A stretch of 64,000 bases of DNA. It comes from Dioscorea cayenensis subsp. rotundata (Eukaryota > Streptophyta > Magnoliopsida > Dioscoreales > Dioscoreaceae). The translations under genes were made by a program, and so were the position numbers. How positions within the stretch are numbered: position 1 is the first letter of the stretch; the number at the start of each line of letters is the position of its first letter. The DNA is taken from assembly GCF_009730915.1 (NCBI RefSeq), contig NC_052488.1:22252305-22316304 (forward strand), read 5' to 3'. Positions 1,500 through 51,100 of this stretch are shown in pieces. Under the pieces are notes generated by a model. The model was not told the origin of the DNA, ran no database searches, and was given only the letters and a program-made list of their open reading frames with translations.

Positions 1500-2074
1500 T
1501 GTCTAAGGACCCTGTAGTTGTCGTTTAGGGAGAACCTCTCTCATCCACTCAGCACGCATCCCCTGACGCTCTTGATAGGCAGAACGTTGGGCAGAACGTT
1601 ACCCTGCCCAACTCACCTGCTTCACTCTCGCCTCCTCGGCATCCACCCCATAGCATCATCACTGATGGGCAGAGTGTTGTTTTGCCCAATGCTCCACATG
1701 ATCTCTTACTTGGGAAGCATCGCACGAATGATATTCGAAATCGGTCCACCTCGCCGTCTCCCGTTATTCGTGCTTCCTTTCCACTTGGTCCTGCTCAGGG
1801 GTTATGTGAGTCTGATCTTTCTCATGAGATGGCGGTTGATAGGGTCTCGGAGGCTCTTCGGGGCGACCCTCCTGATGCTAGTATTGATGATGAGGAGGGT
1901 TCTTTGGAGAACGATGATGATGAGATGGGAGCCGAGGTGGAACCGGATGATCTTATGACTCTCGGTCAGTGTCAAGCGGAAGCCAGAAGGGATGCTTTAA
2001 TCCGGAAAGGGTCACAGGTTTCTTTGCCTTCTCTCAAGAAGGGTAGAGTGGATCTGGCAAGAAAGGACCGATAG
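1500..2074 (+). pseudogene. LINE ORF1 3' fragment
   Basis: The frame ending at 2074 (open from at least 1682) encodes an acidic then basic tail with a run of Asp/Glu residues and ends just before the endonuclease ORF, as ORF1 C-termini do in plant L1 elements. No zinc knuckle or start codon remains. The neighbouring frame 1518-1958 is a shadow. Assignment rests on position and lack of any other candidate. Confidence 0.5.
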
Positions 2075-2163
2075 TCTTGGTTTTTCCTTTCTTCATGGGT
2101 TTTCTCTTACTGTTTATGATGTTATCGGACTTATTGTTTTGTGTTCTCTTTATCGTGTTTATT

Positions 2164-5100
2164 ATGATGAATTTGTTTAAAATCATTTGCTGGAATTGCA
2201 GGGGCATTTCTGCGAGGGATACCTCTAATCAAGTTCTTAGGTTTATTCGTAAGCACAAGTTGGATATGATTTGCCTTACGGAGACTAGGGCCAATGAGGA
2301 TCGGGTTAATCGGTTTTGTCGGTGTCTTCCTGCTATGTGGGACTGGTCGGCTATTCTTGCCGATGGTTTTTCGGGGGGCATCCTTGTTGCTTGGCGGAAG
2401 GTTATTGGTAGGGTTTCTCCGATTGCTATTTCTCGGAGAGCACTTCACCTGATCATTTCTCCGAATCAATTTGGTAACTGTATCATTTCGGTTATTTATA
2501 ACTCAGTGCACTTTCATTCTCAATGTTCTTTGTGGAATGAGCTTTCTAGGTTCTCTTCCATTGGAATCCCTTGGCTCGTTATTGGAGATTTTAACACTAT
2601 TTGCTCTAGTGATGAGCATAGGGGTGGTCCTTTTTATTATTATGCTTGCAAGGCTCGTTATTTCGTTAACTTTATTGAGAGTACTAATCTTCTGGATTTA
2701 CAGTTTATTGGTCCTAGATTCACATGGTGTAATAAGCAAGTGAGTCTTGCTTTCGTATCTGGGCTCGGTTGGATAGAGGGTTGATCAATTTGGATTGGTC
2801 TTCTCGTTGTCGCTCAACCGACCTTGACGACCTCCCGAAGGTTTTTCTCGATCATGCTCCCCCTTTTTGGTGATTTGTTAATCTTTCCAATAGTCATATT
2901 CGTAGTCCCTTTCGCTTTAATAATTTTTTTGGTTGGATTATGTTGGTTGTCATAGTCTTTCGTTCGCAGGGGCTTGGGCTTTCTCCCCTAATGGTACTCC
3001 TATGCATGCTTTTACTCACTTGCTTTTTTAGATCGCGTGCTAATATTCTTAATTGGTGTAAAGAGGGCTTGACTAATCTTGATATGGATATTAAGAATCA
3101 TCGAGTCCATTATTTCTTCTCTAGAAATGTCATTGCTTTTTGATGATGGTACTGCGAGGGTCTTCTAGAGGAGATGTATGCCAAATATGCAATGCTGGAA
3201 AAGCAAAACACCAGCAAATGGGCCCAGCGTGCACACCTGGCCTGGGTTTGTGATGGGGACACCAATTCTAAATTTTTCCATAATGCTACTCGTATTCGCA
3301 GGCACTTCAACCAGATCACTCAGGTAAAGGATGTTAGCGGTAATTTATTTACAGAGAGGTCGGGTATTGAGAATGCTTTTTTGAATTTTTATTCTCGATT
3401 GTGGACTGGTTCTACTACTGATTCCTTTGCTGATATTATGAGTGCTATCCCTAATGATCTCCCTCAGCTCTCGAACATGGATTGTGATTTCCTCACTCGT
3501 GAGGTTACCCGTGAGGAAGTTAGATTGTCTGTTTTTGAGCTTCCTTTGGGTAAATGTCCTGGTCCGGATGGCTTTAATGCTGAGTTTTATCGTTTTTTCT
3601 GGGCTGATATTGAAGATAGTTTGTTTGAGGCTGTTAGTTTTTTCTTCACCAACTCTATTATGCCTAATTCTTGGGGGAAATCCTATATAGCCCTGATTCC
3701 TAAGAAAGACAGTCCTATGTCTGTTACTGATTACAGACCAATTTCCCTGTGCAATGTGTGTTTTAAGATTATTTCTAAAATCTTGGCCAATCGGTTGAAG
3801 CTTGTTCTCCCTAATCTTATTGGTAGAGAACAAGTGGGCTTTGTTTCAGGTCGTTGTCCCTTCGATAATATTATTGCTTTGCAAGAAGTGGCCCATACGA
3901 TTGAAACTGATTATAGAAACCCTCCTAGGATGTTAATCAAAATAGATATCGAGAAGGCTTATGATACAATCCATTGGAGTGCAATTCTTGCTACTCTTTC
4001 CAAAATGAATTTCCCTCCTATTTGGATCTCTTGGATAGAAGCTTGTATTTCGTCCACCTCTTTTTCCTTTCTTATCAATGGGCAGCCTACCCCTTGGATT
4101 AGATCTTCCAGGGGTATCAGACAGGGTGATCCTATCTCTTCTTATCTCTTCATTCTTGTTTCTCAAAATCTCACCACTATCCTGAATTTTGCTCTGGTCA
4201 ATAACTTTGTCCCAGGTTTTGATATGCGGCTTCGCAGTAACTTTAATCATCTTATGTTTGTTGACGATTTAGTCATTATTACTCAAATGTCTCGTAAGGC
4301 AGCTAGATCTATCAAGATTTGTCTAGACTTCTATGGCAAAATTTCTGGACAGGTCCCTAATGTTTATAAATCTGCTATCTATTATCCATCCTGGGCTAAT
4401 AAGAGGGTGGCTAGTCGTATTTGTTCTATCCTTAACTTCTCGGCTGCTACATTTCCGCTCAGATATCTAGGGATTCTTATCTCTCCCAAGCGCTTGGCTA
4501 AATCCACTTTTGCTGTTCTTATTGATAGCATTAAAAATCGATGCTCTCGGTGGGTTCACTCTAAATTGTCACCTGCAGCCAAGACAGTGCTCATCAATAC
4601 CTCACTTCTGTCCCTTCCTCTCTACTATATGTCTGTCTATCCGGTATATGACTCTATCCTTTTAGAGATCCATAGGATTGTTAGGAGGTTCTTTTGGAGT
4701 AAGAGTAGCAATGGAAAGGGCATCCATGCTGTTGCTTGGAATGATCTTACTATTTCTAAGACTGAGGGGGGTCTTGCAATCAGAAATCTTACTCTTGCAA
4801 AGCATTCCTTGATGGCTAAAAATGTTTTTAAATATCTTAATTGTGACAATTGTCTTTGGGTTGATATTCTGCTCCTTAAGTATGGCATGCTTAACCTATG
4901 GAGGGACTCCATCCCTTCTGGTTGCTCCTGGTTCTTTAGGGGTCTCTGTTATACAGCTATCAAAATTAATCCTAGCTTAAGAATTAGCTCTGTTAATCCT
5001 GATCTGACCTCTCTTTACAATCATCCATGGTGCTCTGAGGTTCCTCTCTGGATGTGTCCTACCTATTTCAATGTTAATTTAAATTTGGACTCTCTTGGAT

Positions 5101-6080
5101 TCTCTGACTTTTGTAGTTATGGGTCCTGGGATTTAGACAAGCTTGGGCTGTTATTTGGTGATTGGTTGGACTGCTTTATTTCTAAGCTGGGTGTCATTGA
5201 TTCTAATGGCAATAATCATTGGGTTTGGTCCTCTAAATCAGTGAATCAAAGCACTTCAGCTATTGTTTATCAGTATCTTAATAGCTCTTCTTGTTGGTTT
5301 GATGGTTGGCCGGGTTGGAAGAGGATCTGGGATTTAAATGTGGCTCCTCGGGTCCAACATTTCTTGTGGCTAGCTTTTAAGGGAAGGGTTAGTACTTATG
5401 ATTATCTTTATTCCATTAATTTGAGTCCCAGGAATTTTTGTGCCATGTGTAATTTAATGCATGAATCAATTGAGCATCTCTTATACTCGTGCAATTTGGC
5501 TCAAGCTGTTTGGGGTCATGTTTGCACTAAGCTTAATATTTCAAATCCCTTTTCTGGGGGTTTTTGTTCTGGCGAATGGCTCATCTGTGATTTACTGACT
5601 CCATTTGCTAAGGCAGTCATTACTTCTGCAGCTTGGTTTTTGTGGAAGAATAGATGTGATAAAATTTTCAGGAGATGTTCTGTCTCTAGCCTGGTCATTG
5701 TCTCCCGGGCTTTCTCCCATGCAAGGGACTTCTCCTTTGCCCATGCTGATAAATTTGGAACCCGGTTGATTCTTAACAATTTTTCTTTCAGGGATGGACT
5801 TTTCCTTTTCGTGGTCAGCCAATGGATTGAGGCATCTGAGGTAGGGAATGTGGGTTTCTTTTGTGTCTCTTCTAATCTCTCTGTGGTGTTGGCGGTCTTT
5901 GGTCCGGTCGCAGGCAAGGAATCTCTGAGGATGCTCGATCTGAGCGATCATCAACGCTCTTCGGGTTTCGTGGATCTTGGATTATCTCTCACGCCTTTCG
6001 CTTCATCACGAGCCCACGGTTCCAGCGAGGATTATTTCGTGACGATCTACACCGAATACGAGGGCTTGGACTTGGATTAA
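2164..6080 (+). pseudogene. LINE ORF2 (endonuclease plus reverse transcriptase), broken
   Basis: ORF2 normally nicks target DNA and copies the element RNA into it. The start at 2164/2167 opens an apurinic-type endonuclease (CWNCRGI, then a TETRA catalytic Glu motif, then GDFN near 2590). The frame shifts by one base at about 2745 and meets a stop near 2872. From 3174 the frame is open to 6080 and holds the reverse transcriptase, with PGPDGF near 3560, the palm IRQGDP near 4115 and the catalytic box at 4257-4268. A C-terminal zf-RVT-like segment with HFLWLAFKGR and CAMCN lies near 5360-5460. The catalytic box reads FVDD where FADD/YADD is usual, one C-to-T change away. The last 100 or so residues are not recognisable. 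Confidence 0.85.
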
Positions 6081-6687
6081 TCGCATCAACTCCATACTTC
6101 ACGGGGCTAGCTGTCCTTCCATACATCTCATTCCCAAGTCTTGGGCTTCACCCGACTACAAGCTCGCATCCTTGGCCTCAATTTGCATTTGCTCACGTTA
6201 TTTTTTTCCAGTGTCGTGAGTTGCGCGTTGGGTTATGAAAGCTTTTTGCAGTGAAGGTTTTATTTTTTAAGTTTTTGTTGCTTTGGTTGAGTCCTTGTAT
6301 TTCATTTGAGTTTTGTTTTTTGCTTTGGTTGTACTATTGAACTCTTTGTAATTTTTCCCCCTATTAATAAAATAAGCTCTCAGAGCTCTTCTCTTAAAAA
6401 AAGTTGTCGGACCCGGACCGGCCCGGCCGGTTCAATTGGAAAAACCGGGAACCGGCCATGTGGCCGGCTCGGGTATACCCCATTGAACCGGGTATAAAAA
6501 AAACCCGGTGTTAACCCGGTGACACGGGCGGTTCAACCGGGAATCGGTTGACACGGGCGGGTCAATCGAGTCACAATGTTTAATTTTTTTTTACAATATT
6601 TAATAATTTATTATTATTTTCTCATTAAAAACCATAAAATCGTGTATATTTATTAATATTAATTTATAATTTATAATCAATAAATAG

Positions 6688-12648: not shown

Positions 12649-13332
12649 TCAAGCAGGGGTGCTTTGCTCCTCGAGCTTTTGCACATAGGCCTTGAGCGTG
12701 AGCACCAGCTCACGCGCGGGCGCTTGGAGCGTGCTGACGAGCGAGATCGAAGGGCCTTGCAAAGCGCCGAGCAACTTAGCATAGATCTCTTCTCGGCTCG
12801 GCAATGTCTCGAGCACCTTGAACTCATCCGGCGCGTAGAAGCGCCCCTCGAACACAGCTCCGGTGAAGTCATTGTCGTCGAGCTTGCGTTCCTTCTGGAA
12901 TTCCCTGTAAGGTTTGAGCGCTGCCGGGATCTCCTCGGTGTGGACGAAGAGCCAGGCGTTCATGCCCTTCATGCACGGCTTCAATGCCTCCCATGCCGTG
13001 CCCTCGATGGCTTTGCCGACGAGGGTGTTCTTAGCGACGATGAGCTTCACGGTGTCCGGGAGGGTGCCACGGAGGTCCTGGAACTGCTTGACGGTGAAGC
13101 CGGTGTAGCGGATGCCGGCGATGAGGTAGCAGCTCTCGAGCTGTTGCTTCACGTTATCGACCGTCTCCTCCTTCTTGGTCCGGCTAATGGCGGCGCGAAC
13201 GAAGGGGAGGGATCGGCGGCGAGGTTTGCAGACTAAGGTGGGGGATTTTAGGGTTAGGGTTAGGGATTGGGGACGGAGAGAGAGAGGGTGGGGTTTGGAG
13301 GAGGAGGAGAAGGAACAGAGAGTGGCCTCCAT
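12649..13332 (-). CDS. RPL10: Plastid 50S ribosomal protein L10 (uL10c)
   Basis: Single-exon gene for 227 residues. uL10 forms the base of the ribosomal stalk, binding 23S rRNA and the L7/L12 dimers that recruit translation factors; here it acts in the chloroplast ribosome. Residues 1-46 are Ser/Leu/Arg-rich with almost no acids, a chloroplast transit peptide ending near FVRAA. The mature part has the uL10 pattern: a SRTKKEETV start helix, YTGFTVKQFQDLR and VAKNTLVGKAIEGT. The 3' end faces the reductase gene with only 217 bases between the two stops. The transit-peptide codons contain a telomere-like TTTAGGGTTAGGGTTAGGG (plus strand, 13247-13265). Confidence 0.93.
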   Translation of the reverse strand: MEATLCSFSSSSKPHPLSLRPQSLTLTLKSPTLVCKPRRRSLPFVRAAISRTKKEETVDNVKQQLESCYLIAGIRYTGFTVKQFQDLRGTLPDTVKLIVAKNTLVGKAIEGTAWEALKPCMKGMNAWLFVHTEEIPAALKPYREFQKERKLDDNDFTGAVFEGRFYAPDEFKVLETLPSREEIYAKLLGALQGPSISLVSTLQAPARELVLTLKAYVQKLEEQSTPA

Positions 13333-14026
13333 TGCTGAGAAATGGAGAGCAATTCAATACCATAACTGATAACCCCCTCTTCTTCCTTACCTTATCCTTT
13401 TCTTGTTAATTATTATTTTGCATTTATACCCCTCTCAAATTACAAATTACTTTACTTTTGTATAAATATATATATATATATATATATATTTATCAATGAG
13501 GGCGCAGATTCTATTAATGTCAGTAAAATTCAATTATACATATATGTTTGTGTTTTATTCATTGGATTCAATGATGGAAAATATTTTTGTATAGTTCTCT
13601 GTAAATTTTGTATAGTAAAAAATAAGATAAATAATATTTTGATTGAATAGTTCAATCATGATCGGTTTAATTATTATTTATTATATTATTGTTATACCAA
13701 TTTATGTTTGTATTTTTCTATTTCTATTATTTTCCTGGTTTGTAGACATTTTATATATAAAAAACTTTAATAGTTGATGAATTCTATATGTATATTGTTA
13801 ATACTCTTGCGAAAACACATATGAAATAATGAATTTATTAAAGGTTTTAAGGTTTATTCTGCAAATTTAAAAAAAAAATTAATAATCATTTTTCGTTAAA
13901 AAAGGTTTTAAGTTTTATTATATTCCAAAATTTTAAAAAAAAAAATCATTTTTTTATATAAAATAGAAAAATAAATAACAAAACAAGCGGAGGTGCTGAG
14001 CAAGCTTTGGGCAAAACAAGAGGACA
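13333..14026. promoter_or_regulatory. Shared divergent promoter region of L10 and TOP6A
   Basis: About 690 bases separate two oppositely directed start codons. Most is AT-rich, with a (TA)n run at 13463-13489. No strong TATA box could be assigned to either gene. Likely holds both promoters. Confidence 0.45.
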
Positions 14027-15304
14027 ATGTCGGAGAAGAAGCGCCGCCGCCCGGAGCCCGGCACGTCCAAGCGGTCCCGTTCATCGTCCTCCTCGCATGC
14101 GCACGAGCTCAAGAACCAGCTCAAGCCCGATACTGAGATCCTCTCCTCTCTCCACCGCCTCCGCGCCGCCACCCAATCCTCTTCCGATCAAACCCTAACC
14201 CTCTCCGATCTCAACCTCTCCTCCCCTTGCCGTGAAGTCTCCGATCTCGACTCCTCTTCCGTCCGCCTCGCCATCGAGCGCGCTGCTCTCTCCGCTGCCC
14301 GCTCCATCCTCTCCGGCAATGGATTCTCCTTCTCCATCCCCTCCCGTTCCTCCTCCAACCAGCTCTACCTCCCCGAGCTCGACCGTATTGTCCTCAAGGA
14401 CAAGACCTCGTCGCGCCCCTTCGCCAGCCTCTCCACTGTCCGCAAGGCCACCATCACGGCCCGTGTCCTCTCCCTCGTCCACGCCATCCTCCTCAACGGA
14501 ATCCATGTCACTAAGCGTGATCTCTTCTACACTGACGTCAAGCTCTTCGGCGACCAAACCCAGTCCGACGCCGTACTCGACGACGTTTCGTGCATGCTTG
14601 GCTGTACCCGATCCTCCCTCCACGTTGTCGCCTCCGAGAAGGGCGTCGTCGTCGGCCGTCTCGTCTTCTCCGATGACGGCGACCGCATTGACTGCACCCG
14701 CATGGGAATTGGCGGTAAGGCCATTCCTCCCAACATCGATCGCGTTTCTGACCTTGAGAGTGACGCCCTCTTCATTCTCCTTGTGGAGAAAGACGCCGCC
14801 TTTATGCGTCTCGCTGAGGATCGCTTCTATAACCGCTTCCCTTGCATCATCGTCACAGCCAAAGGCCAGCCGGATGTCGCCACCAGGCTCTTTTTGAAGA
14901 AGATGAAGACCGAGCTCAAGCTTCCGGTGCTCGCATTGGTTGACAGTGATCCCTATGGATTGAAGATCTTGTCTGTTTATATGTGTGGATCTAAGAACAT
15001 GTCCTATGATAGCTCTAACCTCACAACTCCGGATATCAAGTGGCTCGGAATCCGGCCAAGTGATCTAGATAAGTACCGCGTGCCGGAGCAATGCAGATTG
15101 CCTATGACTGATCAGGATGTGAAGGTTGGGAAGGATCTCTTGGAGGAGGATTTCGTGAAGAGGAATGAGGGGTGGGTGAGGGAGCTGGAGATGATGGTGA
15201 GGACGAGACAGAAGGCTGAGATTCAGGCTCTCAGTTCCTTCGGATTCCAGTATCTCACTGAGGTTTATCTGCCTCTCAAGATACAGCAGCAGGATTGGTT
15301 GTGA
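14027..15304 (+). CDS. TOP6A: DNA topoisomerase VI subunit A (SPO11-3/TOP6A)
   Basis: Intronless gene for 425 residues, close to the usual length for plant TOP6A. With TOP6B it forms topoisomerase VI, which passes one DNA duplex through another and is needed for endoreduplication and cell growth in plants. A basic Ser-rich N-terminus (KKRRRPEPG) may direct nuclear entry. The winged-helix domain has [12 protein letters not shown] with the DNA-linking Tyr168. The Toprim domain has the metal-binding Glu254 (LLVEKDAAF) and Asp306/Asp308 (DSDPYG). It ends QQQDWL, much like other plant TOP6A proteins. This marks it as TOP6A and not the meiotic SPO11-1 or SPO11-2. GC content is very high in the first 800 bases and drops later, a monocot-like gradient. 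All catalytic residues are present, so it should be functional. Confidence 0.95.
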
Positions 15305-19272: not shown

Positions 19273-19280
19273 TATATAAG
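19273..19280 (+). promoter_or_regulatory. TATA box of first small-protein gene
   Basis: TATATAAG sits 149 bases before the ATG at 19429, at the right distance for a short 5' leader. Confidence 0.5.
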
Positions 19281-19428: not shown

Positions 19429-19584
19429 ATGTTGAAGATCTTCCATGCAATGGATGGTACTAAGAGAAGAAGTTTACCAAAGAGAGGCAAGATCAAAGCC
19501 AATATATTCAGGATGATGTTCAGATCACTTGTAGCTTTGGCTTCAAAACCAGCAACAAGCACAAGAACAAGGAGAAGTTCTTAA
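19429..19584 (+). CDS. Small PKRG-core protein 1 (51 residues, function unknown)
   Basis: An intronless frame for a 51-residue, strongly basic protein. It carries LPKRGKIKANI at about 16-26, the core shared with the two genes downstream, followed by an amphipathic segment (FRMMFRSLVALA) and a Thr/Arg/Ser tail. No signal peptide or membrane span is convincing. The ATG at 19429 is chosen because a TATA box and leader precede it; an internal ATG at 19450 also precedes the core. Support for a real gene is the protein-level conservation of the core in three same-strand frames whose surroundings differ. I do not recognise a named family. The basic core could bind nucleic acid or a kinase partner, but that is speculation. 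Confidence 0.65.
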   Translation: MLKIFHAMDGTKRRSLPKRGKIKANIFRMMFRSLVALASKPATSTRTRRSS

Positions 19585-20896
19585 AGGTTATAAATTTCAT
19601 TTCTCTTTATTTTACAATGACAATGTACCAAGTTTTTCCATCTCTTCATTTGTCATTGTTGTTGTTGTTGGTGGTGGTGTTGTTGTTGTTGTTGAGGGAG
19701 AGATACATAATGATATTGTTAATGATGCATGACTAATGTCTCTTTCATGCACATTAAGTGTATGTGAAATGTACACAATCAATGGCATGCAGAAAATGCA
19801 GTTAATTGCTCAGAAAACAGTGGATTTTGTTATTGCAGAGCCTGCACAAGCCACATGCACACACACTACAGTTTGCAGACCTGTCTCATCGAATGATTCA
19901 AAACTTTGTATTTTTTTTTTATTGCCAAAGTGGGATTGAACCTGTAAAACCACTGTGCCTTTAACTGTAGTGATTCTTTAATGCTTATTATAAGGATCTG
20001 TCACGGTCTTCTTCTTCTTTCTCTTGTTGTTGTTGTTCTTCTTCTTGTTTGTTTATTTATTTATTTATTTTTTTTTTTTTCTGAATTGCTTTAATACAGT
20101 TAGGAGACATGTTGTTCAAAGTGGGGCTTGATAAGACTAGTGAAAAGGGGGACAATTATTGTTCAATCTCTCTTTAAAACAGAAAGCTTTGACTCTTGGC
20201 ATTTAACATGGTTCTTTTATCTTTTATTTTTGTAAGAAAATTAACAAAGATGCATTGCAAGCATGTGTGAAATATTGGTTCATTATTGAATGATTCAGTG
20301 ATTCAGAATTCTAAGGTATCAACCTGTGACTTGCTTCATTAGTTTTCATGCAGAAAGGCTACAGTAACATTGTTTGGGATCAAGTGCTAGCTTCAATATA
20401 GTTTATTCCAAAGTAAAAGTGGTGTGTTTGGTTTTATAATTAAATACAGAGATCAAACACTTAATTACTTTGAAGCATGTGTTCCATATTGAGATTAACA
20501 ATACAATTAACATCTTTGTTTCTTTCTTGTTCTTTTGCTTTGGAGATATGGAAATAATGAAAAGCATCTTTTGAGGATAGTGCTGAGGCCTTTTTGGTCA
20601 GTGCACTAACTAAGACAAAGCATTTACATGATCTTTATTGATATTGTACAAGCATCTTTACAATCAGAAACCCAGTATTGCATTACTTAATACCAAGATA
20701 ATTTCATGGATCTGTGTGGGTTCTTTAGCTCAACAAATAGGAACAAGTCACGTAACTCTATTTGCAACTTATTCCAGATATGATAGAATCAACATATGCT
20801 TGTCTTTTTTTATCTTTAGAAGCTTAAAAGATGCTCACTGATCTTTTTTCTTATTGCAAGTTGGTAAAATTCTATTAGAAGATATTCAGGTTGGCT
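19585..20896. other. Intergenic DNA between small-protein genes 1 and 2
   Basis: Contains GTT-rich microsatellites (about 19658-19695 and 20025-20045) in the probable 3' region of gene 1. No further copy of the PKRG core and no other supported gene. Confidence 0.45.
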
Positions 20897-20904
20897 TATA
20901 AATA
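20897..20904 (+). promoter_or_regulatory. TATA box of second small-protein gene
   Basis: Perfect TATAAATA, 117 bases before the ATG at 21014. The leader after it contains a CAATAA/CAA repeat (about 20936-20966). Confidence 0.6.
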
Positions 20905-21013
20905 GGCTTAGTTATCATTCTCATGTCATTAAGTAACAATAACAATAACAATAACAACAACAACAAAAGTAGTACTAGAGTTACCAAGTTCTTTGGAAGA
21001 AGAAAAGGTAGCA

Positions 21014-21223
21014 ATGGCCTTTGGAGTTTCTGAGTTGCAGAGAAATGGAAATCCTTTGCCAAAGAGAGGGCAAGTAAAGGCAAAGATTGTAAGTATTCTG
21101 GTTCGATCTGTCTCGCAAAGCTTTAAGGGAGAAGAAAGAGCTAGATCGGACGGCAGTTGCTCGCCGCCGATAAACAGGTTGTCTTTGAGTCGCAATAATT
21201 CAGAAAATATGTCTGAAGAATAA
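21014..21223 (+). CDS. Small PKRG-core protein 2 (69 residues, function unknown)
   Basis: Intronless frame for 69 residues. The order is a short N-terminus (MAFGVSELQRNG), the core NPLPKRGQVKAKI at about 13-25, an amphipathic helix-like segment (VSILVRSVSQSF), then a Ser/Asn-rich hydrophilic tail ending EE. A perfect TATA box and an AAC-rich leader stand just upstream, making this the best supported of the three. The first ATG in frame is used; the frame opens five codons earlier but without an ATG. Its likeness to genes 1 and 3 is confined to the core, with the tails diverged, as in old tandem duplicates under selection on the core. The function is not known to me. Confidence 0.72.
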   Translation: MAFGVSELQRNGNPLPKRGQVKAKIVSILVRSVSQSFKGEERARSDGSCSPPINRLSLSRNNSENMSEE

Positions 21224-22213
21224 GGATAATATTAGAAAGAGATCATCAGTATGTTTATCTGAAGCATCATGTATACAGTACTACTACTCTGTTTATATTG
21301 TTTCTTGTTGGTTTTGTAGACTGCTTTGTTTATAAAGAGACTTAAAACAGTCTTTTTTATTTTTGTATACTTGTTGTTTAATTACTGAGAAAATTTACCG
21401 TGTGTTTGAGCAAGCAAGAAGACAAGGGAAATCTTTTAAATTCCTGCTCAGAAGTTTGAAGCCATTATAACTTCAATTCTCTGACTAGGAAAAGATAAAA
21501 GTTTGAAAATTAAATAACAAGACGAAGGTGAAATTTGTCTCTATGGACTCATGGATTCTGACTGGTTCAGAGAATATGCCAATTCATGATTGACCATTTC
21601 TTGACAGTAATTCTTTAACAGCAGTAACATTTTTACTGTATTTTTCTCTTGCTCTGTTTTACTTCTCATCAAAAACTGGAAACAATCTTGGAACTAGTCT
21701 TCTTCTAGAGTTCCATCAACTCAATCTCTTCTAGAGAGAGTGGGCAAAGCCTTGTGGGTGGGAGACTTAGAGTTATGACTACATTGAAAGGTGCTTTAAG
21801 TCTGTCCCATGAAGTCAATTAATTAGCCAGTCTCTTTCACTATTACATGCTCTCTCTCTATCTCTCTTCCTTCCTCTGTTCACACTTCACAGTTCATACC
21901 AAATTGACAGAGAAATTATTGAATATATTTAGAATAATAACCAGGATGATGTGCTGGTAAACAATCACTTCATGGATTTATATGTATAGTTTTGCATTAA
22001 TCATTTACAATAACAATGGCGTTGAATGTTCAAAAAGGTTAAAGTGTCAATGCATTGCATCTGGCATTGTGGGACCTATGAGATAACCCAAAACTTGGCA
22101 CAAAAGAAAGCTATTCTAAGTGGCTTTCTTCTCTTTATCATCCCCTAAACAACCCCTTGTAAGTCTTGTTCAACTTCATCAAACTCTTAACAAGTTCAAC
22201 TTCCTCTGTCACA
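21224..22213. other. Intergenic DNA between small-protein genes 2 and 3
   Basis: Probable 3'UTR of gene 2 followed by the promoter of gene 3. A CT-rich stretch lies near 21850-21875. No other gene is supported, and no clear TATA box for gene 3 was found. Confidence 0.45.
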
Positions 22214-22411
22214 ATGGCCTCTAAGTTTAGTCCTGAGAATTCTGAGAAGAAACCAGCTGGTAATCCATTCCCAAAGAGAGGTCAGATCAAAGCCAATATA
22301 ATGAAGGAATTCATCTCTTTTTTCATGACCAAGAATGATGATGAATCTGAGAAGAAAAAGGAGAAAACTGCGGTGATGCCGATTCGATCTTTCGGCAAAG
22401 CTGACAAGTGA
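22214..22411 (+). CDS. Small PKRG-core protein 3 (65 residues, function unknown)
   Basis: Intronless frame for 65 residues: N-terminus MASKFSPENSEKK, core NPFPKRGQIKANI at about 17-29, a hydrophobic patch (MKEFISFFM) and a highly charged Lys/Glu tail ending in PIRSFGKADK. The core is nearly identical to that of gene 2 and matches gene 1 at PKRG-x-IKANI. The start is the ATG at 22214; the in-frame sequence before it has no ATG. A tandemly repeated 3' region follows at 22496. No export signal is seen, so a cytosolic or nuclear protein is likely. I do not recognise the family. Confidence 0.7.
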   Translation: MASKFSPENSEKKPAGNPFPKRGQIKANIMKEFISFFMTKNDDESEKKKEKTAVMPIRSFGKADK

Positions 22412-22495
22412 TCAAAGTATGAAGAGAATTGGGTAATGCTCTGTGGATAGTTTTCAGTGTTTGCTCTTTTTAATGCAACACTGTGTAGGTGTTTG

Positions 22496-22698
22496 CTCTG
22501 TTTCTTATGTTTCATGCAAGGAGACCTCTGTTTTGGGATACTCTGTTTTTATGATCCCAAAAACAGGGTTGAATTGCCTTTTATTATTATTATTATATAA
22601 TGTGAAGGTTGTCTCTGTTTCTTATGGTTCATGCAAGGAGACCTCTGTTTTGGGATGCTCTGTTTTTATGATCCAAAAAACAGGGTTGAATTGGCTTT
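22496..22698 (+). repeat. Tandem repeat in the 3' region of small-protein gene 3
   Basis: Two copies of about 86 bases, 22496-22580 and 22613-22698, differ at only a few positions. Each begins CTCTGTTTCTTATG and ends AACAGGGTTGAATTG. A short (ATT)n spacer separates them. The repeat keeps a frame open at 22443-22700, but that frame has no ATG-led protein logic and is rejected as coding. Confidence 0.75.
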
Positions 22699-25601
22699 AG
22701 TTTTTTTTTGGTATCTGAAGGTTGTTTAGCAATTAGCTGTTGATCTTGCTCTGTTACTATTGTTTTTCAGGTAACAGAGTATAAGATTTTTAGTCATTTC
22801 ATGGTTTTTGGAATAAGTTCTGTACTTGTTTGTGTTCTCATGTGTTTCTTATTTCAAGCATTATCCAAAGCTCTGTTTTTATTAGCTTTAATCTATTCTT
22901 GTTCCTTTTGTTGTGGATTGGATTTCATTGATTGGCAAAAAGAAAAGAGAAAAAGGGAATCAAGGGAATAAACAGGGTCCCAATTAGAATTTTTTTTTTT
23001 TTTATCATTATTATTTTTCTGAAAATAGACTTGTTGGATGATACCAATTAATACAAATTAGCAAAGAAAAGTGTCTACTTGCATAATTTGGATTCCAAAC
23101 ATTTGTGATTTGTAAATGAATGAATCAAATTACTTATCCATTCAGTCATTTTGTCCAAAGATCATAAAAAAAATATTCTGTAATTAATATTCTTTGACTC
23201 ATATTTTCAAAAACAAAATGAATGTGGATTTAATGGTTCCAACTAATTATGTTTGGGTATATATCTCTTTTGACTGGCCGGCTAGGCAAGATGCTTTATT
23301 GAAAATATTTTTATTTTTAGTTTTATAAAAATAGATAAATCATAGTTTTATTAAAAAAAATATTTTTGTTATTGATTTGACTCATATTTTTTTAAAAATA
23401 ATTCTCATTTTAATAGTTTTAAATAAATTAAATAGTTTAAGAATATCCACCCTCAAATTGATTTTTAAATACAATATAAAAATAAATAAAATTTGTGCTT
23501 TATGAGATTATCACTCATGAAAACATACTATAAAAACTAATTTCTCACTGAACTCTGTCTATTTAAGTATTGATTAGATCTTTTTTAGCATTGTTTTCAT
23601 CACTATGCGAAAAGGTCTTTAGTAAATTTACATAGCAAAATCTTTTTTTTCATCTAAATAATTTTGCTAATTAAAAAAATATTTAAAAGCAGATGTATGC
23701 AAAATTGTTATTGTTTATTTGAAAATTATTAATAAAAAATAAATTGACAAAAAAAATCTTTTTTTTTTTTAATGTGGTAGTGAATCTAAACTGGGCCCAA
23801 GAGGCATGACACTTTATCAGTTCAACTATTAAAAGCAAAAAGTGAATAAGATTTGATGAATTTTCAAATGGGAACCATTCAGAAGTTTTGGAGCAGGACA
23901 CTCAAATGAGTGATGATCATATGATCATGCAAGCTCTCTCTTTATATATATATATATAGGCCTATTCATATGACCAAAATTTTTAACTCAACTTACAGAA
24001 ACGTACACTTTGAAAGTTGATTATTTTATTGACTATATGATATGCAGACTATGTCAAATTTTCTTTTTTCTTTAAAAAAAAAAAGAAAAAGGAAAAAAGA
24101 AAAACAAGCTCTTTGACGCCCACTTTGATTGCATGAATTTTGCACATTGAAACCTTCAAAATTTTTGAATTGGTTGTTCTTATGTAAATGCCTTGAGTTT
24201 TCGGTTGAGAGAAAATAAAGGAAAGTTTTTTTTTTTTTTCAAAATAAATAAATAAATAACTTAAGGAAAGTTTTTGATGTATTTTTAACCTTATTGACTT
24301 AAAAGAGTGATGGCCTTATATCATGCAAGCTCTCTCTTTATATATATATATATATATATATATGCTTATTTAAAATGGCTAATATTTTTGGTTCAACTTA
24401 AAGATATGTACACTTGAAAGTTGATCATATTATTGACATTTGACCATATGATGTGCAGTGCAGACTATTATGCCAAACTTTATTAAAAAATGCTCATTGA
24501 CACACACTTTGATTGTACGAATTTTGCACATTGAAACCATTAAACTTTTGCCATAAATTAACCAGGAGTCAATCAATAATATACCATCAAGCATAGTTTA
24601 CCTATTGAGCTTGAAAGTTAGTGAAATTTTGATGTTATTATTGTTGACTATGTGATGATGGAGAGAGAGAGAGAGAGAGCAAAGCACTCCACCTCAAAGT
24701 GCTCCTCAAGGTCAACAATGGACTAATGTTTGACAAATGAAATAAAAAAAATAAATAAATAAAAATGTTTGCCAAATGAAATCCAGATGAAGATTCAGGG
24801 ATGTTGCTGGTTGGCTTCCCCTTCATTTTGACATTTAGTCTACATGATTTTTTTCCCCACTTGAAGCACATTCTCTTCATTTGCTAATACTTCTTAATTT
24901 CCAGCATTGAAACAAAAATATAAAAAGACAATTTGCCCGGGACGGAAATGGGAAGAGACCTCCCCGTCCCCGCGGGAGACGAAATTAGGGAATCTCCATC
25001 CCCATCAAGTTAGATCACATGAAATTCAAAGATCCCGCCCCGTTACCACCCTTACTCTTATTCAATTATAGTTTGAATCTTACATTCAGGTAAAAAAAAA
25101 ATAGAAAATGGAAGAAGAAAAAAGAGTGTTTCAATTTGTATATAGAAATAAATCTCCATCTTATTAAACCATTAAATCATCACATGAAGCAAAAAAAACA
25201 TGGATGGATATCTGGCCTGTTGTGACAAACAAAAATTAAAAATCTTATTTTTCATGCGTCAAGGGCGATATACTCAAAAATGTCCTCCTAACACGATTTC
25301 ATGCATCCAAAGTCTGGCCGAGTTGGGAGAAACTGCATCAAAACTTGCTTCTCTTACAACTCACCAAGCAAAGTTCATTAAGTTATTGTCATTAACAGCA
25401 GAGTGAATAAACACTGACAGAATATTTGAAATGGTCCTCAGGCAACAAACCTTCATCTTGTTGACAGTTTACAAGGATCATAATTATGGACTTGTGCTTT
25501 CGAATTGTGGCCTATGATTCAGAATTGCTGCGGTCGGCTCAGGGGTCCGCAAAGTTCTCACACCAAAATGTATCATACAGCTCTCGAGGTCATGCTTCAA
25601 T
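22699..25601. other. Gene-poor stretch with duplications and a GC-rich relic
   Basis: No supported gene. Contains poly-T and poly-A runs, the duplication at 23907-24560, a (GA)n run at 24660-24679 and a CG-rich patch at about 24936-25050 (CCCGTCCCCGCGGG and related) that looks like a transposon terminal relic. The last part is probably the 3'UTR of the CCCH gene. The 68-codon frame at 25200-25406 has no supporting feature. Confidence 0.5.
23907..24560. repeat. Diverged tandem duplication, period about 395 bases
   Basis: Copy 1 is about 23907-24170, copy 2 about 24306-24560. Shared ordered anchors are ATCATGCAAGCTCTCTCTTT, a (TA)n run, GTACACTT, GAAAGTTGAT, ATGCAGACTAT/GTGCAGACTAT, CACTTTGATTG and GAATTTTGCACATTGAAACC. 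Non-coding. Confidence 0.65.
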
Positions 25602-34000: not shown

Positions 34001-37000
34001 GATTTTTTTTTTAGTACGGCGAAAATGATTAGATTTGAATTTGGAATTGGGAAGGGATCCTGCTGATCAATGATCTAAAGGGGTTGAAGCACATGATTCA
34101 GTGGAATTAGTTTATAATGTTGTATTAAATTTCATATGTCTAATAATCGAGTTGTTGCTGGAAAGACATCCTCTGCCAATTTCAATATCTTGTTAGGAGG
34201 GTTATGCAGGTGGTTATATATATATATATAAGTCTAGATGTGGCAGCTATTTTTCTGCTCAAAGTTGATCTTCCCTTGTGAACTGCAAACACAATATATT
34301 AAATTTTCATCCTAAATTTGGTATATATTGTTAGATGTATCCTACAGTTGCATGGTCCTTGCTATAACTATTAGTCATTTTCATCTGTTGGTTTGACTGT
34401 TTTTTTTTTCTATTTGATTTATGCTTCAGAAATTTTTTTGGGTGTTTTTCATAAATCTCTAAATCCTTTTGTTTATCATCTACATATGCATAATGCTTTT
34501 TTGACGCAGGTAGCTTTGGAGTTCTAATTGTCAAAATTTTCTCAGTTAATTGATGCATGTTTGTTTGTTTTTTAAATACCATTTCAAATCGCAAAGTCTC
34601 AACAATTAAGATGATATTTAGAATCTTAATTTGTATGGTTTAGTTTTAGTTGTTGTAACTAATGTAATATATTTATTTGATAGTACAATTTTGTTTGAGC
34701 TCCTTTTTTTCGTGGCATGGTTTAAATTCATTGCTTTATTTTTTTGATATAGGAGTAGAGTGCCTCAGATTGCTTCAAGTAATTTGCAAAGGCGTTCAGG
34801 GAGTGTATTGCCTCCACCAGCAGATGATTTTTATATTGATGGAACAGTTTCCAGCAAACATATGGTCAAGGGTGCCCCAGCTGTAAGTTGTTTTATTCAC
34901 TAATTTTTAGTGAAGATTAAGCTTGTATTGAAAAATCTGCTCATTTGTGTCCATGTTAATGGCATTCTCTTGTTATACTGTTTTTTTTTATATTGTATTA
35001 TGTGTTCCATTGCCAGAATTCTTCAAGTCAGGTCAAGGTTTCTTTGCCTGGCAATATTTCTGTAGCAAAACCAACAGTTCTTCCAGCAGCTGCTTCATGG
35101 TTGGTGGTCTAAAGTTTGATATATGTTTGGTTATGCATTTCTATATTGCTGAACTTCTGGTCCTTGTAGGGGAACCCGTGTTTCTAATTGTCGGCAGCCT
35201 GCTGCAAGTGTGGCATGTTCTCAAAGTCCTGCAAAGCAAAAGGCAGACATAAATAATGCACCGGCCCTTATTTCTTCTGTGGTTGCTAATACAAGACAAA
35301 ACTCTGCATGGCATGATGATGTGGTCTCTGCATCAAAAGCTTCTGAAGGAAGGAATGGAGCGTCTTCTGTTTGTAGATCCAGGCCTCTAGAACAGTTAAA
35401 TCCATCTATTGACGGTGACTCCATGAAAAGTCTATCAGATCTGTCATCAGAAGCTCTTGATGTGAATAGTGTTTCTGTAGCTTCTGCTTGGGATGATGAT
35501 GAAACTACAATATATAAGGCACCTGAAGAGAAGCATATGAAGCTTCATGTTGGCAGGTCGGGACCCTTAGAGTGTTTGGATTCTACTGTGGTCAGGGACT
35601 ATGGACAACATGGATCAGATCTGTCATTGGAACCTGTATTGGATGCAGATTATAGTGCTGAAACTACCATGAATAGCTCGTCTGACTCTCTACCTCCTGC
35701 TTCTAAAGATGTTGATAGAGGTGTGACTGCCCCGAGAAGCAGAAAATTTTTACACAATGCATCTGAAGGTCTCATCGGGCAGTCTAGCAGCTCAACTAGT
35801 GGGAGCATAGCTGCCGTTGGGGGTACTGCTAACAGTGGAAATGGACAGGATGCAAGCTTGATGTTGCCTTCAATAAACATTGATAATCAATCAAACAGGA
35901 TTTTGCATCAAAATTCAGTTGTGGCTCCCCTTTCAGTTGGTATACCTGTCAGCACTAGTTTAAGATTGCAACAATGTCAGAAGGAACTGGTGGTCAAAAA
36001 TGATTCTTTAACATTGTTAGATGATGCTTCTTTAATGGTTGATGTGAATAGTACTAGAGAGTCAGTTTGTAGCAGCCCAGAATATAAACAATTTGCACCT
36101 TGTACAATAAAGCAATCAGAAGGTGTTGCATTGAGCTCAGATGATCAAAACCATGAATATTCAGATATTTCCAGTCAATCCCCATGGTCTTATTTGCACC
36201 AAACTACATGTAGATCAAGTATTAATTCATGGAACAATGAGCCTGAAAGTTTAAATCCCATTGGTAATGGTTTGACAAAATCTGTTCCTCTAGAATCAGA
36301 TGGGGGCTTCCTGGAAAGAGAAAAGGAGTCCATATTGCCCAATGGGCATATTCATAATGGAGTAATCCGGTCAAATCACAGAATGGAGTCTGATATTAGT
36401 AGCCTTAAAGATAAAGTTAATTGTTTGGAGATATCTTCTTCTTCAAATGCTATAGATGAAACTTCAAATGTGGATACAGGGGAAAGCAGCATAATCTCAG
36501 ATATACTGGCTTTAGACTTTGACCCATGGGGTGACTGTTCTGCATCTGATAGTTTGGTTAGCATGCTTCGTGAAACTGATAAACAAGAAGGGTCTTTTAA
36601 ACTATCAAATTCATGGAAAATACAGAATAATAATGAATCCAGGTTTTCATTTGCCAGGCATGAAAATCAATTAAGTAGTTCAGAACATTCTTTTGCTGAC
36701 CACTCTCAGAAACTCTCCTCTTCATCATGTTATTCATATGGAGAAAGTTTTCAGGATGGTTTGCTATTGAATGGCTTGGCAGCACCCACCTCTTTTGCCA
36801 GCAGCAACTCAACTATTTCAGCTGACAAGGTTGCCGGTATGTGCTAATTCTCTGTTCTCACATGTTATATGATAGCTTATTTTTTTCCCATCACTACTGA
36901 ATTTTGTTTATTGATTTGCAACCCTGCTTCACTTAAAAAAGCGTACAATAGGTTACACAAGATAAGGGTCTGTGTATACGCATCAAGGTGATATAAGTCA

Positions 37001-45143: not shown

Positions 45144-48100
45144 CTACCGAAGACCAGGCTGCATGAACATCTCAGGGGAAGAATTATTTCGCTCCGGGAG
45201 AACCAAATCCATGGGTTCCACATTCACTGATGATCCTATCGAATGTTTCGAGTAAATGTCAATCGGCAATTCTCCACATTGCTCTGAACCTTGCTCGATC
45301 GCGATCGCCTCCTGAATATCTTTTAGTACTTCAGACATCGGCGGCCTTTGTGTCCCTTGTGGTTTAACACACATGATTGCCTTCTCGGCTATCTTCCACA
45401 CTGATTGTTCATTATAATCGTCCCCGAGCGAAGGGTCGATGATTCCCTTAATATCACCACTATCAATGTGTAATTTCGCCTACGATACACAGTATGATGA
45501 TCCAAAAATCAGTGATACAAAAAATGTGAATTCTTGAATGAATATAGAGATACTGGGGGTAAAGTTGTCTCACCCATTGGACTATATTCCGGCAATTGGC
45601 ACCGAAGTTTTCGTTTGATATTGGCTCTTGACCTGAAATCAACTCTAGAAGAATAACACCGAAACTGTAAATGTCACTCTTCTCAGTAAATTGCTGAGAG
45701 ATGTAGTACCTGTTCAATGCCGATAACATAACTAAGTCTTAGATAACGATTCATTCCAGTGAATAACTAAAATTGGTGTATGAATGCTATTTGTAGAAGG
45801 GAAAAAGGCTTCCTTACTCAGGGTCCAAATATCCAACGGTTCCTCGAACTATACTTGAAACATGAGAACCATCAGATGCCGGTTTTGAGAGACCAAAATC
45901 TGAGACCTTTGCTCTCATGTGCTCATCAAGAAGAATGTTGCTACTTTTAAGATCCCTGTGGATGATGGTCGGAGAACAGCCAGTGTGAAGGTACTCAATG
46001 CCTGATATTTTCAGATAGAAGAAGGAAAAAAAACTGATTATTTTCTAAAAATGCAAGCAAAGGATTTCAATTTTCAACATTCAAGTGTCGAAAGAAGTAC
46101 AAGCCGATCAACCTTTTGCAGCATCCTCGGCAATCTCAAGGCGTTTAATCCAATTTAAACTTCTTCTCAGGGATGCTGATCCTGGAGACATTTACAGACA
46201 GCCGAGTTCATCATACTCAAGAAATCGACAGGAGGAACTTTTATATGGCACCCATACCGAATCAAAACCACATAATGCTTACCATGAAGATGATCTTTTA
46301 GAGTTCCATTGCGCATAAATTCATATACAAGGATGTTCCTTCCATCCTCTTGGCTGTATCCGAGAAATGTAACCAGATTCCTGTGATGTATTCTGGAGAG
46401 CAGTGACACCTGAATAAGATTAATCATAGGCGGTGTCAAGATTAATAAGAGAAAACCAAGCATGAGACGAAAATGATTCTAAGATTATATAGTATATATT
46501 GTATGAAATATTTGAAACAAGGAGGTACCTCATTATTGAACTCACGATATCCTTGGAAGGATTCATTTGTAAGAACTTTCACTGCAATTTCTTTACCATC
46601 TTTCAGCTTGCCATAATAGACAATACCAAAACCTCCAGAACCAATTTTTTGTTTAAATTTCCCAGTAGCTTCATCAATTTCAGATAACTGAAATCTATAA
46701 GCTGATTCAGTAGCAATTTCGCTGAAGAAAGAACGTAATTTCTGAGTTGGCCGAGCATTGGTACGATTGTCTGCAACAGAAAAGCTCCCGCTTTTTAAAA
46801 GATAAAGCAGTTTGTGTGATAAAGATAGCGTTCGCGAATGTACCTTTGTGGAAATCCTTTCTTTTTTTTCGAACAGCACAAAAGCGGCATGCAAAGAAAA
46901 CCGCGATCAACAGTAATACTCCAACTACTGAACAGATTATAATAATTATCAAGTGACTCTTGTCACTGCTTTCTTTATGGAGGTTCACATTTCCTGAATA
47001 ACTAGCATGGGAAAAATAAAAGATAACTTTGCTCAGCCATACAGAAAGACAGGCGACTCAAAACAAAAGTAGATAAACAATATACAAAACTTAGGAAGTA
47101 TTGTTCAAGACAATGTGTGAAAGGCATGTGAGTGGTAGTAAGGCATATATGTAAAAGAAACAGAGGAAAGATGCCAAACGACTTTACTTACATTACTCTA
47201 TGAGAAACAATAAAATTCTAGGCCTTCTTTGAAGGCTCCCATAAATCCTCGTTTGTTAACTAAATAACCGGGGACAAACATTCACCATAGAGATAAATAA
47301 AGGATGTCCTTTGTGCCTTCATTTGACGGGGAAGTTAGAAAAACTATAACTATATGTCCTCCAAAAGTCTTTAAATCTTTCCTCAATGCTAGTATATTTG
47401 TAAAGCTCATTTTGTCTAGCATAAGCAAAAACAAACAAACAAACAAACAAAAAAATTCCAATAGAACAGATGGACTGCAAATGGAAGACCATTATGTTAT
47501 ACGTATTTTAGCATTGATAAACTTTGATGCACATGTAGCATATCAGAACTTAGTTGGCAAGACCATGCATTAATCCGACAAAAAAACTAACTCTTGTCAA
47601 TGCATCGTGCTCTTACCATGCAAAATCAAACTCAAAAAATGCAGGGAATATGATTTATGCATTTAATTCTCAATGAAGAAAATGTAGGACCTACTTGAAA
47701 ATTATGTTTTTATTAAGAAGACCTGCTGGAATTGATCCAGACAGCATATTGTCCTGCAAGTACCTGCAATCATCAAAATCGCTCATTAAATTCTCACACA
47801 AAGAATGGGCTTCATTCAAGCTTCTTAAATGGATAGAAACTGTCCATAAAAGAAATTGAATATGCATAAATCAAGAATAACAATTAATATATATGGGTTA
47901 AAACTATTGCAAAATGAAGGCACTTAAAGAGAACTAAAATCTTGCTTTGAGAACCTCAGATTGTTGACCATCAAAAATGAATGTGTCTTACAAATGAATA
48001 CCAAAAAATTATCGACTGATATCCAGGTCTGAAAACTTACAACTCCTTTAAATTTGGTAAGTCCGCCAAATATGAAGGCAGTGCACCAGTCAATTGATTG

Positions 48101-51100
48101 TTTTCAAGGTGACTACAACAAAGAAAAGTATGAGAATATAGATAAGAGATTAAAAGAACTGGAATAAAGATATATACAATCTTACATGTGCTCCAAATTT
48201 AAGCATCCGGAAAAATCAGGGATTGGACCAGTGAGTGAGTTCCCATCGAGTCGCCTAAAATGATCAAATTAATGATTAGTATAATACTAAATTACCAAGC
48301 TTTGAGAAGCAAATGAAAAAGCCTGAGAACACTTTGAATCTTACAGATCAACTAAGCTCGTCAACTTAGTCAGTTCTAATGGAATATTCCCCGTCAAATT
48401 CTTCCCTGACAAATTACTGTCAGCAGAGAACAGCAACAAATCATTGACAGGATTTTGGTTAATATCAGTACCCTGATATTTAATTACAATTTAATCTAAA
48501 GATAAAAGGCAGTGATAAAATCTAAACGCAAATTGGCCCAACAGTTCATTACATTAATGATATCTTTGGATTTGAATCCAAACTGCATTCCACCCAAGAC
48601 CATGATGCTGGCAGGCAGGGATCACCTCCTTCTTGTGCCCAATCTGCCAGGGGATAGCGGGACACAAAACTTGCCAATACGGATGCTGCAAACCCATTAT
48701 GTTGATTTCAAAAAGTTTGCTCATCTTGTTGAAAACCAAGCAAATTAAATCAGTGACTTCACAGGGCAAAAATTAATTCTTACCATCTGGAGAACCATAA
48801 TTTATTTCCACATACTTGTATATCTCCAAAGCATTCAAGATTGGTCCTTTAGATGAATCATTTGTTTTCTTGAACTCAAAAGAGAAAACAAATGGGAGAG
48901 AAATGTTGGGATAGCCTGGTTCATATAGTCGATAGCTCCCTAGAGCATTTTCTTGCACATTAACAGTGGCTTTACTTAATGCAGGCAAGCCTGGAATAAA
49001 CAGCTTAAATTTCCTAGTTTCATTCGGATTAAGATCTTCAATTTCTGCAAAGTATGAAACAGCCCACCCATTGCCTGGAAAGCCTTCCAAATTAAGCCGA
49101 TAAGTTAAGGATCCATTTTGACCAACAACAGCAGTCTGCATCACCTTTTGAGGTGGCATTTCTTTGATGGAAACATCTACAGGCAGGCTAGTTGATATAT
49201 TTTCAGTTCCTGAAGCAACATCAACAAGGTAGTTTGCTCTTCTCACAGAATCTGACTCCCATATTCTATCAAACGGATCATCTGGATACCTGAAACAGTG
49301 CTAGAAAATCTCTCACACACACTTCAATAATAGTAACAACAACAACAATAATTAGAAGACATCAACCACATATATATATATAATAAGATAAATAATAATA
49401 ATTTTTTGTGAGGACAAATAACAAATGGTAAAACCCAGTGAGTAGAAGACGTGGAGAATCAACAGATAAACAACTGCCTTAGCTATAAAAGATGTAAACA
49501 TGCATGTCAAGGCATCATCTTCATGTGAGTGTGTGTGTTTTTTATTTAGAAAGTTCAATGAAGGGCCTATTGACATCATCATTTTACTTATTTATTTATG
49601 CATTTATTTTGGTAAGTTGAGCTCAAGTATCAGCTGAGACAAAGGATGTCTTTGTTAATTGCATTAAAAGCCTTGCATATAGAAAAAGATTTAATAAAGT
49701 TAACGTCCATGTGGTAACTGGTATCTAAAACTTTCAATATAATGGGTACATAAATCCACCGATTTCTTCTTTTTAACATTTTGTTACGAGTATGGGAAAA
49801 GTATTGCATAACCTTCCATATGCTATGTGCAATTAAGGACCATGAATAATGAAACAATCCTAATAGATCATTTGATTTGATAAAAGAAGATCAGCTTTAC
49901 AGGCAACATATTAGTGCAATAATGAAGTAAAACCATCAAAATGCTCAAGTGGAACTTTGAAAAAATTTTCCAATAAGAAGAATCTTCCAATCCATGGCCA
50001 TAAAGTGACTTTCAAAGACTAAGAAACAAGGCATACCTGACTGAGTCATTGCTAACAGCACCAAAGTTTATTCGTGCGGATAAGCTGAGAAAGAACTGAG
50101 ATTCATATACAGTAGAATAAAGCGAGCCATTAAATTGTCGAAGCTCAAGGGTTGAGATAAATGGCTGTCCAGTTGTTGCATTTGATAAACACAAACTAAT
50201 TGTTGGAGAAGCAGCAAGCAAAACCAACTCTTCTGATTCTATTGTGTTTGCATCAGAAATAATAATAGTAGACCAAGGGGTTGGGCCAAGGGAGATATCA
50301 AATTTCGGGAAAACTGTGCCATTGTCAAAGTACCCATATAAGAAGGTTGCTCTCAGAAGGTACCTAGTTCTGGTCGTCACATTTAATGTGTAGCAATACT
50401 TCTGATTATCAACAGGGAAGTATCGAACTGTCGAGTATTGCTTCCGGTCCTCATTTGGGACAGATATCTGGGCAGTTTTACCAAATACAAATCGATTGTC
50501 AGGAGTCCACTCAAGTCCAATATCATCAACATACTGCTCCGTGCCTCCACAATCTATACTTAAAAAACCTGTTTCAGAACAAGCATGACAATTAGCAAAT
50601 AAACAATTAAAAAATAAATAGATAAATAAATGAAATGCTTTTATCTTTGAATTCAAGCGATTGTATACTACCATACACTCCAAATGAAATGGCCAGTTAA
50701 AATGAAGATAGAGAAATTAAATATATAAACCATGGCTTTGCACCATATAATTTCATGCAAAAGGAGACAAACAGAAGAAAAAGTGCATATCACTTACGAA
50801 ACACACTCGACATAAGGAAATGAGTAGAGAAGACAAAAAAAAAATCAAGAACAACACTGAGCGAAACTAGGATAAGTTACTAATAACTCTAAAGGACAAC
50901 CAATCCCGCTGCCATCCTAACCCATAGTATCACAAAGACAGCTGCTTCTCAAACCAAGTTAATTAGGTTGTTTAAGCCCATATAAATCACACAAAAACAG
51001 CAAGACCACAAAATCACTTTTTTCTCCTTTCCCTCGGTAATATAATATCATACCAAACCAAGTATATCTGGACATAAATACATAACAGAGGTGACTTCTA

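What the first reader, a model, noticed from the sequence alone, without database searches (positions are those of the whole stretch)
19429..22411. Tandem trio of tiny genes sharing a PKRG-x-[IV]-K-A-x-I core
Three intronless frames on the same strand within 3 kb encode 51-, 69- and 65-residue proteins. All hold a core of the form N-P-[LF]-P-K-R-G-Q-[IV]-K-A-[NK]-I (gene 1: S-L-P-K-R-G-K-I-K-A-N-I). A hydrophobic or amphipathic stretch follows the core in each; outside these the sequences differ. Two have TATA boxes at proper distance. Core conservation with free tails suggests a selected, short functional motif in a locally expanding family. I do not recognise a characterised family, and standard gene finders may miss such short genes.
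Basis: partly seen in the sequence, partly recalled or inferred. Interest (0 to 1): 0.75.

Follow-up and report, generated by a model that had tools for sequence, protein, structure and literature searches.

The report
Small plant protein family, PKRG helix motif
Three tiny neighbouring plant genes are real members of an old, scattered gene family whose proteins share one short conserved helical motif, probably used to grip a partner protein that is not yet known.

Summary
The trio is real: intronless frames at 19429-19584, 21014-21223 and 22214-22411 (51, 69 and 65 aa), + strand. The window's own 584-Mb genome (plant, inferred) holds at least 14 intact members, trio included, plus two decayed copies. 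A second tandem trio lies on contig C7; the rest are on seven other contigs. Selection keeps it: pN/pS 0.13 in the 10-codon core over four separate pairs (P=5e-4), while tails change far more freely. A TATA box lies 50-160 nt before the ATG in 13 of 14 members, against 37 of 231 control ORFs. "Locally expanding" is mostly not supported: gene 2 is closer to copies elsewhere than to its neighbours; only genes 1 and 3 look like later sisters. No Pfam, profile-PDB, viral or prokaryotic relative and no paper with the core strings was found. Best guess: an intracellular microprotein docking on one unknown partner; calmodulin binding is the main rival.

The parts
19429..19584 (+). W1, 51-aa protein with core SLPKRGKIKANI
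   Evidence: compared with the other members of the genome. A second in-frame ATG lies seven codons in, so the start is uncertain
19474..19539 (+). W1 motif region (core plus following hydrophobic positions)
19273..19278 (+). TATATA box, 156 nt before the W1 ATG
21014..21223 (+). W2, 69-aa protein with core NPLPKRGQVKAKI
21062..21121 (+). W2 predicted helix, residues 17-36
   Evidence: AlphaFold2 model, (block means of pLDDT 62, 80 and 63 for residues 11-20, 21-30 and 31-40; pTM 0.27)
20897..20902 (+). TATAAA box, 117 nt before the W2 ATG
22214..22411 (+). W3, 65-aa protein with core NPFPKRGQIKANI
   Evidence: no TATA[AT]A in the 250 nt upstream
22268..22300 (+). W3 core DNA, 30 of 33 bases identical to W1 19474-19506

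Best explanation
The trio belongs to an old family of intronless genes for basic intracellular microproteins (37-69 aa). SHOWN here: the family, the conserved motif, selection on it, TATA boxes, loose tails. MODELLED at modest confidence: the motif starts after a Pro-x-Pro turn and runs as a single helix through K-R-G-Q-[IV]-K-[AS]-x-I and about two more turns. INFERRED: the nearly invariant P-x-R-G-Q-[IV]-K-x-x-I is a docking motif read by one conserved partner protein, and the following hydrophobic positions add affinity. The variable N- and C-terminal tails tune stability or a second contact. The protein would act as a small adaptor or competitive inhibitor, much as VQ proteins work through one short motif.
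For: 14 intact members: 3 in the window and 11 on eight further contigs. In 13 members (C1329 left out as near-identical to C1923) P0, R+2, G+3, K+6 and I+9 are invariant and Q+4 is 12 of 13; in my judgement this is more specific than a generic basic helix needs. Core pN/pS 0.13 (P=5e-4) and 21 codons 0.25 (P=3e-6) over four separate pairs that I chose as near relatives. W2 modelled with one helix, residues 17-36, and nothing else. TATA box in 13 of 14 against 37 of 231 control ORFs. C7a and C12 kept the motif and a tail after a duplication that also kept a neighbouring gene. Two copies on C19 with stop codons show that copies do decay.
Against: No partner, transcript or protein evidence is available here. 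Positions after the core and the tails are much less constrained (pooled pN/pS 0.72 for 9 codons after the core; full-length dN/dS about 0.3, 0.5 and 0.7 for three pairs). W1 against W3 gives 0.92 over 22 codons, so selection on genes 1 and 3 rests only on their keeping the family motif. The structure model is weak (mean pLDDT 60.9, pTM 0.27, three sequences). None of 18 upstream elements tested was enriched after correction, so inducible expression is unsupported. The 50-160 nt TATA range was set after seeing the distances.
Confidence: 0.45

Rival explanations
1. Calmodulin or calmodulin-like protein binder: the basic stretch plus hydrophobic anchors at core positions 5, 9 and 14 form a 1-5-10 type calmodulin-binding helix, so the protein is a calcium-dependent decoy or effector.
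For: 1-5-10 spacing at +5/+9/+14 in 12 of 13 members; 0 of 20000 shuffles of residues +10 to +19 gave FILVW at +14 in at least 12 of 13; net charge +3 to +9 over positions -6 to +19. Helix modelled there.
Against: Calmodulin motifs tolerate most residues (recalled), which does not explain the invariant P, R, G and K and near-invariant Q. Hydrophobic moment not above shuffles in any of 13. The 1-5-10 rule is recalled and loose, two of its three anchors are already fixed by the core, and the members are related, so the shuffle is not independent.
Confidence: 0.2
2. Peripheral membrane or organelle-surface peptide: the basic, partly hydrophobic helix lies on acidic membranes.
For: Basic proteins (whole net charge +4 to +14 in 13 members) with conserved hydrophobic positions after the core.
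Against: Hydrophobic moment not above shuffles; membrane binding alone would not keep an exact P-x-R-G-Q-[IV]-K (judgement).
Confidence: 0.12
3. Secreted signalling or antimicrobial peptide cluster.
For: Short basic proteins, six of the 14 in two tandem arrays.
Against: By eye, no N-terminal signal-peptide-like hydrophobic run in the three window proteins (sequences; no predictor was run).
Confidence: 0.06
4. Non-functional ORFs that look alike because of a shared repeat or recent duplication.
For: Tails diverge almost freely; W1/W3 share a 33-base stretch and give dN/dS 0.92 over 22 codons; two decayed copies exist.
Against: Core synonymous change is high while amino acids are kept; 14 open frames across the genome; TATA boxes in 13 of 14.
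Confidence: 0.04

Closest known systems
VQ motif proteins (plant cofactors that bind WRKY factors; start of the abstract of PMC5052590 seen in the listing)
   Same: Plant family defined by one short conserved motif with otherwise free sequence; many are intronless (recalled)
   Different: No VQ pair, hence no FxxxVQxhTG, in the 14 proteins (read); the motif here is P-x-R-G-Q-[IV]-K-[AS]-x-I; no Pfam match in the trio or in the 11 of 14 members scanned
Uncharacterised small plant proteins annotated as 'unknown protein' (e.g. Arabidopsis At2g28570, a lead from recalled gene order only)
   Same: Two papers list At2g28570 only as an unknown protein (passages); genes next to it are recalled to be relatives of genes near the two trios
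1-5-10 calmodulin-binding helices (recalled)
   Same: Spacing of hydrophobic anchors and positive charge
   Different: Stronger residue-level conservation than such helices are thought to need; binding untested

Membership tests
PKRG microprotein family of this genome (defined here) | Core P-[KRM]-R-G-[QK]-[IV]-K-[AS]-x-I in a short open frame | tested here: met
   All three window genes
PKRG microprotein family of this genome (defined here) | Purifying selection on the core | tested here: met
   pN/pS 0.13, P=5e-4 over four separate pairs, of which W2 is the only window gene; W1/W3 alone shows none over 22 codons (0.92)
VQ motif proteins | FxxxVQxhTG motif | tested here: not met
   Absent from the 14 sequences by reading; no Pfam match for the 11 of 14 members scanned
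Any Pfam family | Profile match | tested here: not met
   0 families at E 10 for the trio; 0 families at E 1 for 11 of 14 members
Calmodulin-binding helix (1-5-10) | Hydrophobic anchors at 1, 5 and 10 with net positive charge | tested here: met
   12 of 13 members, W1-W3 included
Calmodulin-binding helix (1-5-10) | Clearly amphipathic basic helix | tested here: inconclusive
   Helix modelled for W2, but hydrophobic moment not above shuffles in 13 of 13
Calmodulin-binding helix (1-5-10) | Calcium-dependent calmodulin binding | not testable with these tools
   Needs a binding assay
Secreted peptide families | N-terminal signal peptide | tested here: inconclusive
   None visible by eye in the trio; no predictor run

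The most novel reading that the evidence does not exclude
P-L-P-[KR]-R-G-Q-[IV]-K-[AS]-x-I-h-x-x-h-h-[RKH]-S-h is an undescribed helical docking motif that defines a plant microprotein family, each member being a small switch on one shared, still unidentified partner.
Probability: 0.35. Interest if true: 0.6.

Novelty: new member of a known kind. Interest (0 to 1): 0.36.

Why it matters
Genes this short are easily missed or left as 'unknown', and no Pfam model matched any member scanned. A motif kept with little amino-acid change, while its synonymous sites turn over and the tails drift, points to a binding site. The partner could be sought with one peptide. If it proves to be a known regulator, at least 14 loci in this genome would gain a likely function at once.

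Tried and rejected
Local expansion of the whole trio: rejected, because W1/W2 and W2/W3 are saturated at synonymous sites and W2 is nearer to C9 and C522, and C7 carries its own trio. W1/W3 (dS 0.60; 30 of 33 core bases) is the exception. Chance ORFs: rejected.

Recent block duplication of the trio between C18 and C7: not shown. In 30 kb of C7 (its trio's 10 kb and 10 kb on each side) no window frame of at least 35 aa other than those of the trio and their antisense matched at E 1e-4. C7 and C12 do share a neighbouring gene at 56% identity, about 5 kb from the motif gene on C7 and 45 kb on C12, in different relative orientation. The window frame 35153-36847 has one second match, with stops, on C7 26 Mb away. 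The search with the window gene near 39.4-40.6 kb had a faulty query and is not relied on; its listed other places were C8, C17 and C15, none near a trio.

Promoter elements: 18 patterns in 800 nt upstream of 13 of 14 members gave a lowest P of 0.009, not significant after correction. Trees: FastTree on 21 codons and on whole proteins gave low support at several nodes and placed W1 and W3 differently.

Relatives elsewhere: viral contigs, 6 pattern matches, none confirmed; genome contigs, 10 pattern matches, none confirmed. PDB: for W2 alone four hits at E 0.025 or worse (F4132-2, T32-15-1, a designed helical repeat protein, a merozoite surface protein), taken as chance; none for the 11-sequence profile. 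No plant collection is held, so orthologues in other plants could not be sought. Papers: the core strings gave none; PKRG with 'plant' and 'small proteins' gave none; a loose search with a recalled PANTHER number gave 23,951 papers by its common words, 5 listed, none of them holding that number; one search was read as a listing only. At2g28570 is a lead from recalled Arabidopsis gene order only: one search listed three papers; passages of two were seen and call it unknown protein; the third was not opened.

Full report
Observation. The three frames are present as described: 19429-19584, 21014-21223 and 22214-22411, + strand, 51, 69 and 65 aa. P-K-R-G-x-[IV]-K-A-x-I occurs three times in all six frames of the window, only in the trio; a related pattern occurred 0 times in 300 Markov windows. 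Genes 1 and 2 have TATA boxes 156 and 117 nt before the ATG; gene 3 has none in the 250 nt examined.

The family. The window lies in a 584-Mb genome. It is inferred to be a plant: the window codes for a ribosomal L10 protein with what looks like a plastid leader (recognised from memory), a TOP6A/Spo11-type protein, malectin-like pieces and a protein kinase (Pfam). Protein searches of that genome found 14 intact members: W1-W3; a tandem trio on C7 on one strand (C7a, C7b, C7c); C12; C9; two on C19; C11; and C522, C1923 and C1329 on small contigs, the last two nearly identical. Two further C19 copies carry stop codons. The search scores only the best candidates, so 14 is a lower bound.

The motif. 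Across 13 members (C1329 dropped as near-identical to C1923), counting from the first core proline as 0: P0, R+2, G+3, K+6 and I+9 are invariant; Q+4 is 12 of 13; +5 is always I or V; +7 is always A or S; +9, +14 and +17 are always hydrophobic; +10 and +13 are hydrophobic in 10 of 13; +15 is K, R or H in 11 of 13 and +16 Ser in 11 of 13. An AlphaFold2 model of W2, built with the three window proteins only, shows one helix, residues 17-36, beginning just after the core proline. Confidence is modest: block means of pLDDT 62, 80 and 63 for residues 11-20, 21-30 and 31-40, mean 60.9, pTM 0.27. Helical hydrophobic moment did not exceed shuffles at P<0.05 in any of 13 members, so 'amphipathic' should be softened.

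Selection. In four separate pairs, chosen by me as near relatives (C19a/C19b, C7a/C12, C522/C1923, W2/C9), the 10-codon core has 9.0 synonymous and 4.0 non-synonymous differences over 27.3 and 92.7 sites, ratio 0.13, P=5e-4; 21 codons give 0.25, P=3e-6. Pooled over all 78 pairs of 13 members, which are not independent, the ratio is 0.14 in the core, 0.48 in the three codons before it and 0.72 in the nine after it, with synonymous sites near saturation, which inflates the ratios. Results against: W1/W3 gives 0.92 over 22 codons, and full-length dN/dS is about 0.3 (C19 pair), 0.5 (C7a/C12) and 0.7 (C522/C1923). Selection is thus focused on the motif, and for genes 1 and 3 it is inferred from their keeping the family motif. 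C7a and C12 also share a tail with SGYTSDA.

History. Synonymous change in W1/W2 and W2/W3 is saturated, while W2/C9 and W2/C522 give dS 0.96 and 1.27; W1/W3 gives 0.60 with dN 0.55. The array is old on the whole, with W1 and W3 perhaps later sisters. They share 30 of 33 core bases but little else, which fits either a sister relation with free tails or a short gene-conversion tract; I cannot tell which. C7 and C12 share a second neighbouring gene, so one duplication was probably of a block. The window trio and that of C7 share no other neighbour in the 30 kb of C7 read. From recall only, relatives of a gene near each trio (a CNOT4-type gene in the window, an AP2/TOE-type gene by C7, both recognised by eye; Pfam named neither frame) are neighbours in Arabidopsis (At2g28540, At2g28550). 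This hints at an ancient common origin and makes At2g28570 a candidate homologue; none of this was tested.

Promoters. TATA[AT]A lies 50-160 nt before the ATG in 13 of 14 members, against 37 of 231 ATG-started ORFs of at least 40 aa in the window (the trio itself included) and 19% of 20000 random points. The range was set after the distances had been seen. Fisher P=3e-9, or 7e-8 for 11 of 12 after dropping two close copies. This supports real transcription units. Of 18 response elements tested in 13 members none was enriched after correction.

Known relatives. None in Pfam (trio; 11 of 14 members), in PDB by profile, or confirmed in viral or prokaryotic contigs. No paper in the library holds the core strings searched. 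This does not make the family new to plant databases; I expect orthologues annotated as unknown proteins in other plants (inference).

Mechanism. The pattern, an almost fixed short motif, one modelled helix, no recognised domain and drifting tails, is best explained by a docking motif for one conserved partner, in a small intracellular adaptor or inhibitor (0.45). Calmodulin binding is the main rival (0.2): the +5/+9/+14 spacing fits 12 of 13 members, but the fixed P, R, G and K are not explained by it.

Noticed in passing
22490-22700: An imperfect direct repeat of about 85 bases, two copies, directly downstream of gene W3 (read by eye from the sequence).
   Followed up: no
1518-6238 and 56027-61934: Long frames that look like LINE-type retrotransposons (endonuclease and reverse-transcriptase-like motifs, recognised by eye) flank the gene-bearing part of the window, on opposite strands.
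   Followed up: no
G000:C19 19527585, 19596552, 19663279: Two intact copies and one decayed copy of the family lie about 69 and 67 kb apart, suggesting repeated large segment duplications.
   Followed up: partly
12649-13353 (-) and 14000-15304 (+): A ribosomal L10-type gene and a TOP6A/Spo11-type gene sit side by side, upstream of the trio (Pfam).
   Followed up: partly
45144-50716 (-): Malectin-like and kinase-like pieces of what looks like one receptor kinase gene (Pfam for the malectin-like pieces; kinase part by eye).
   Followed up: no
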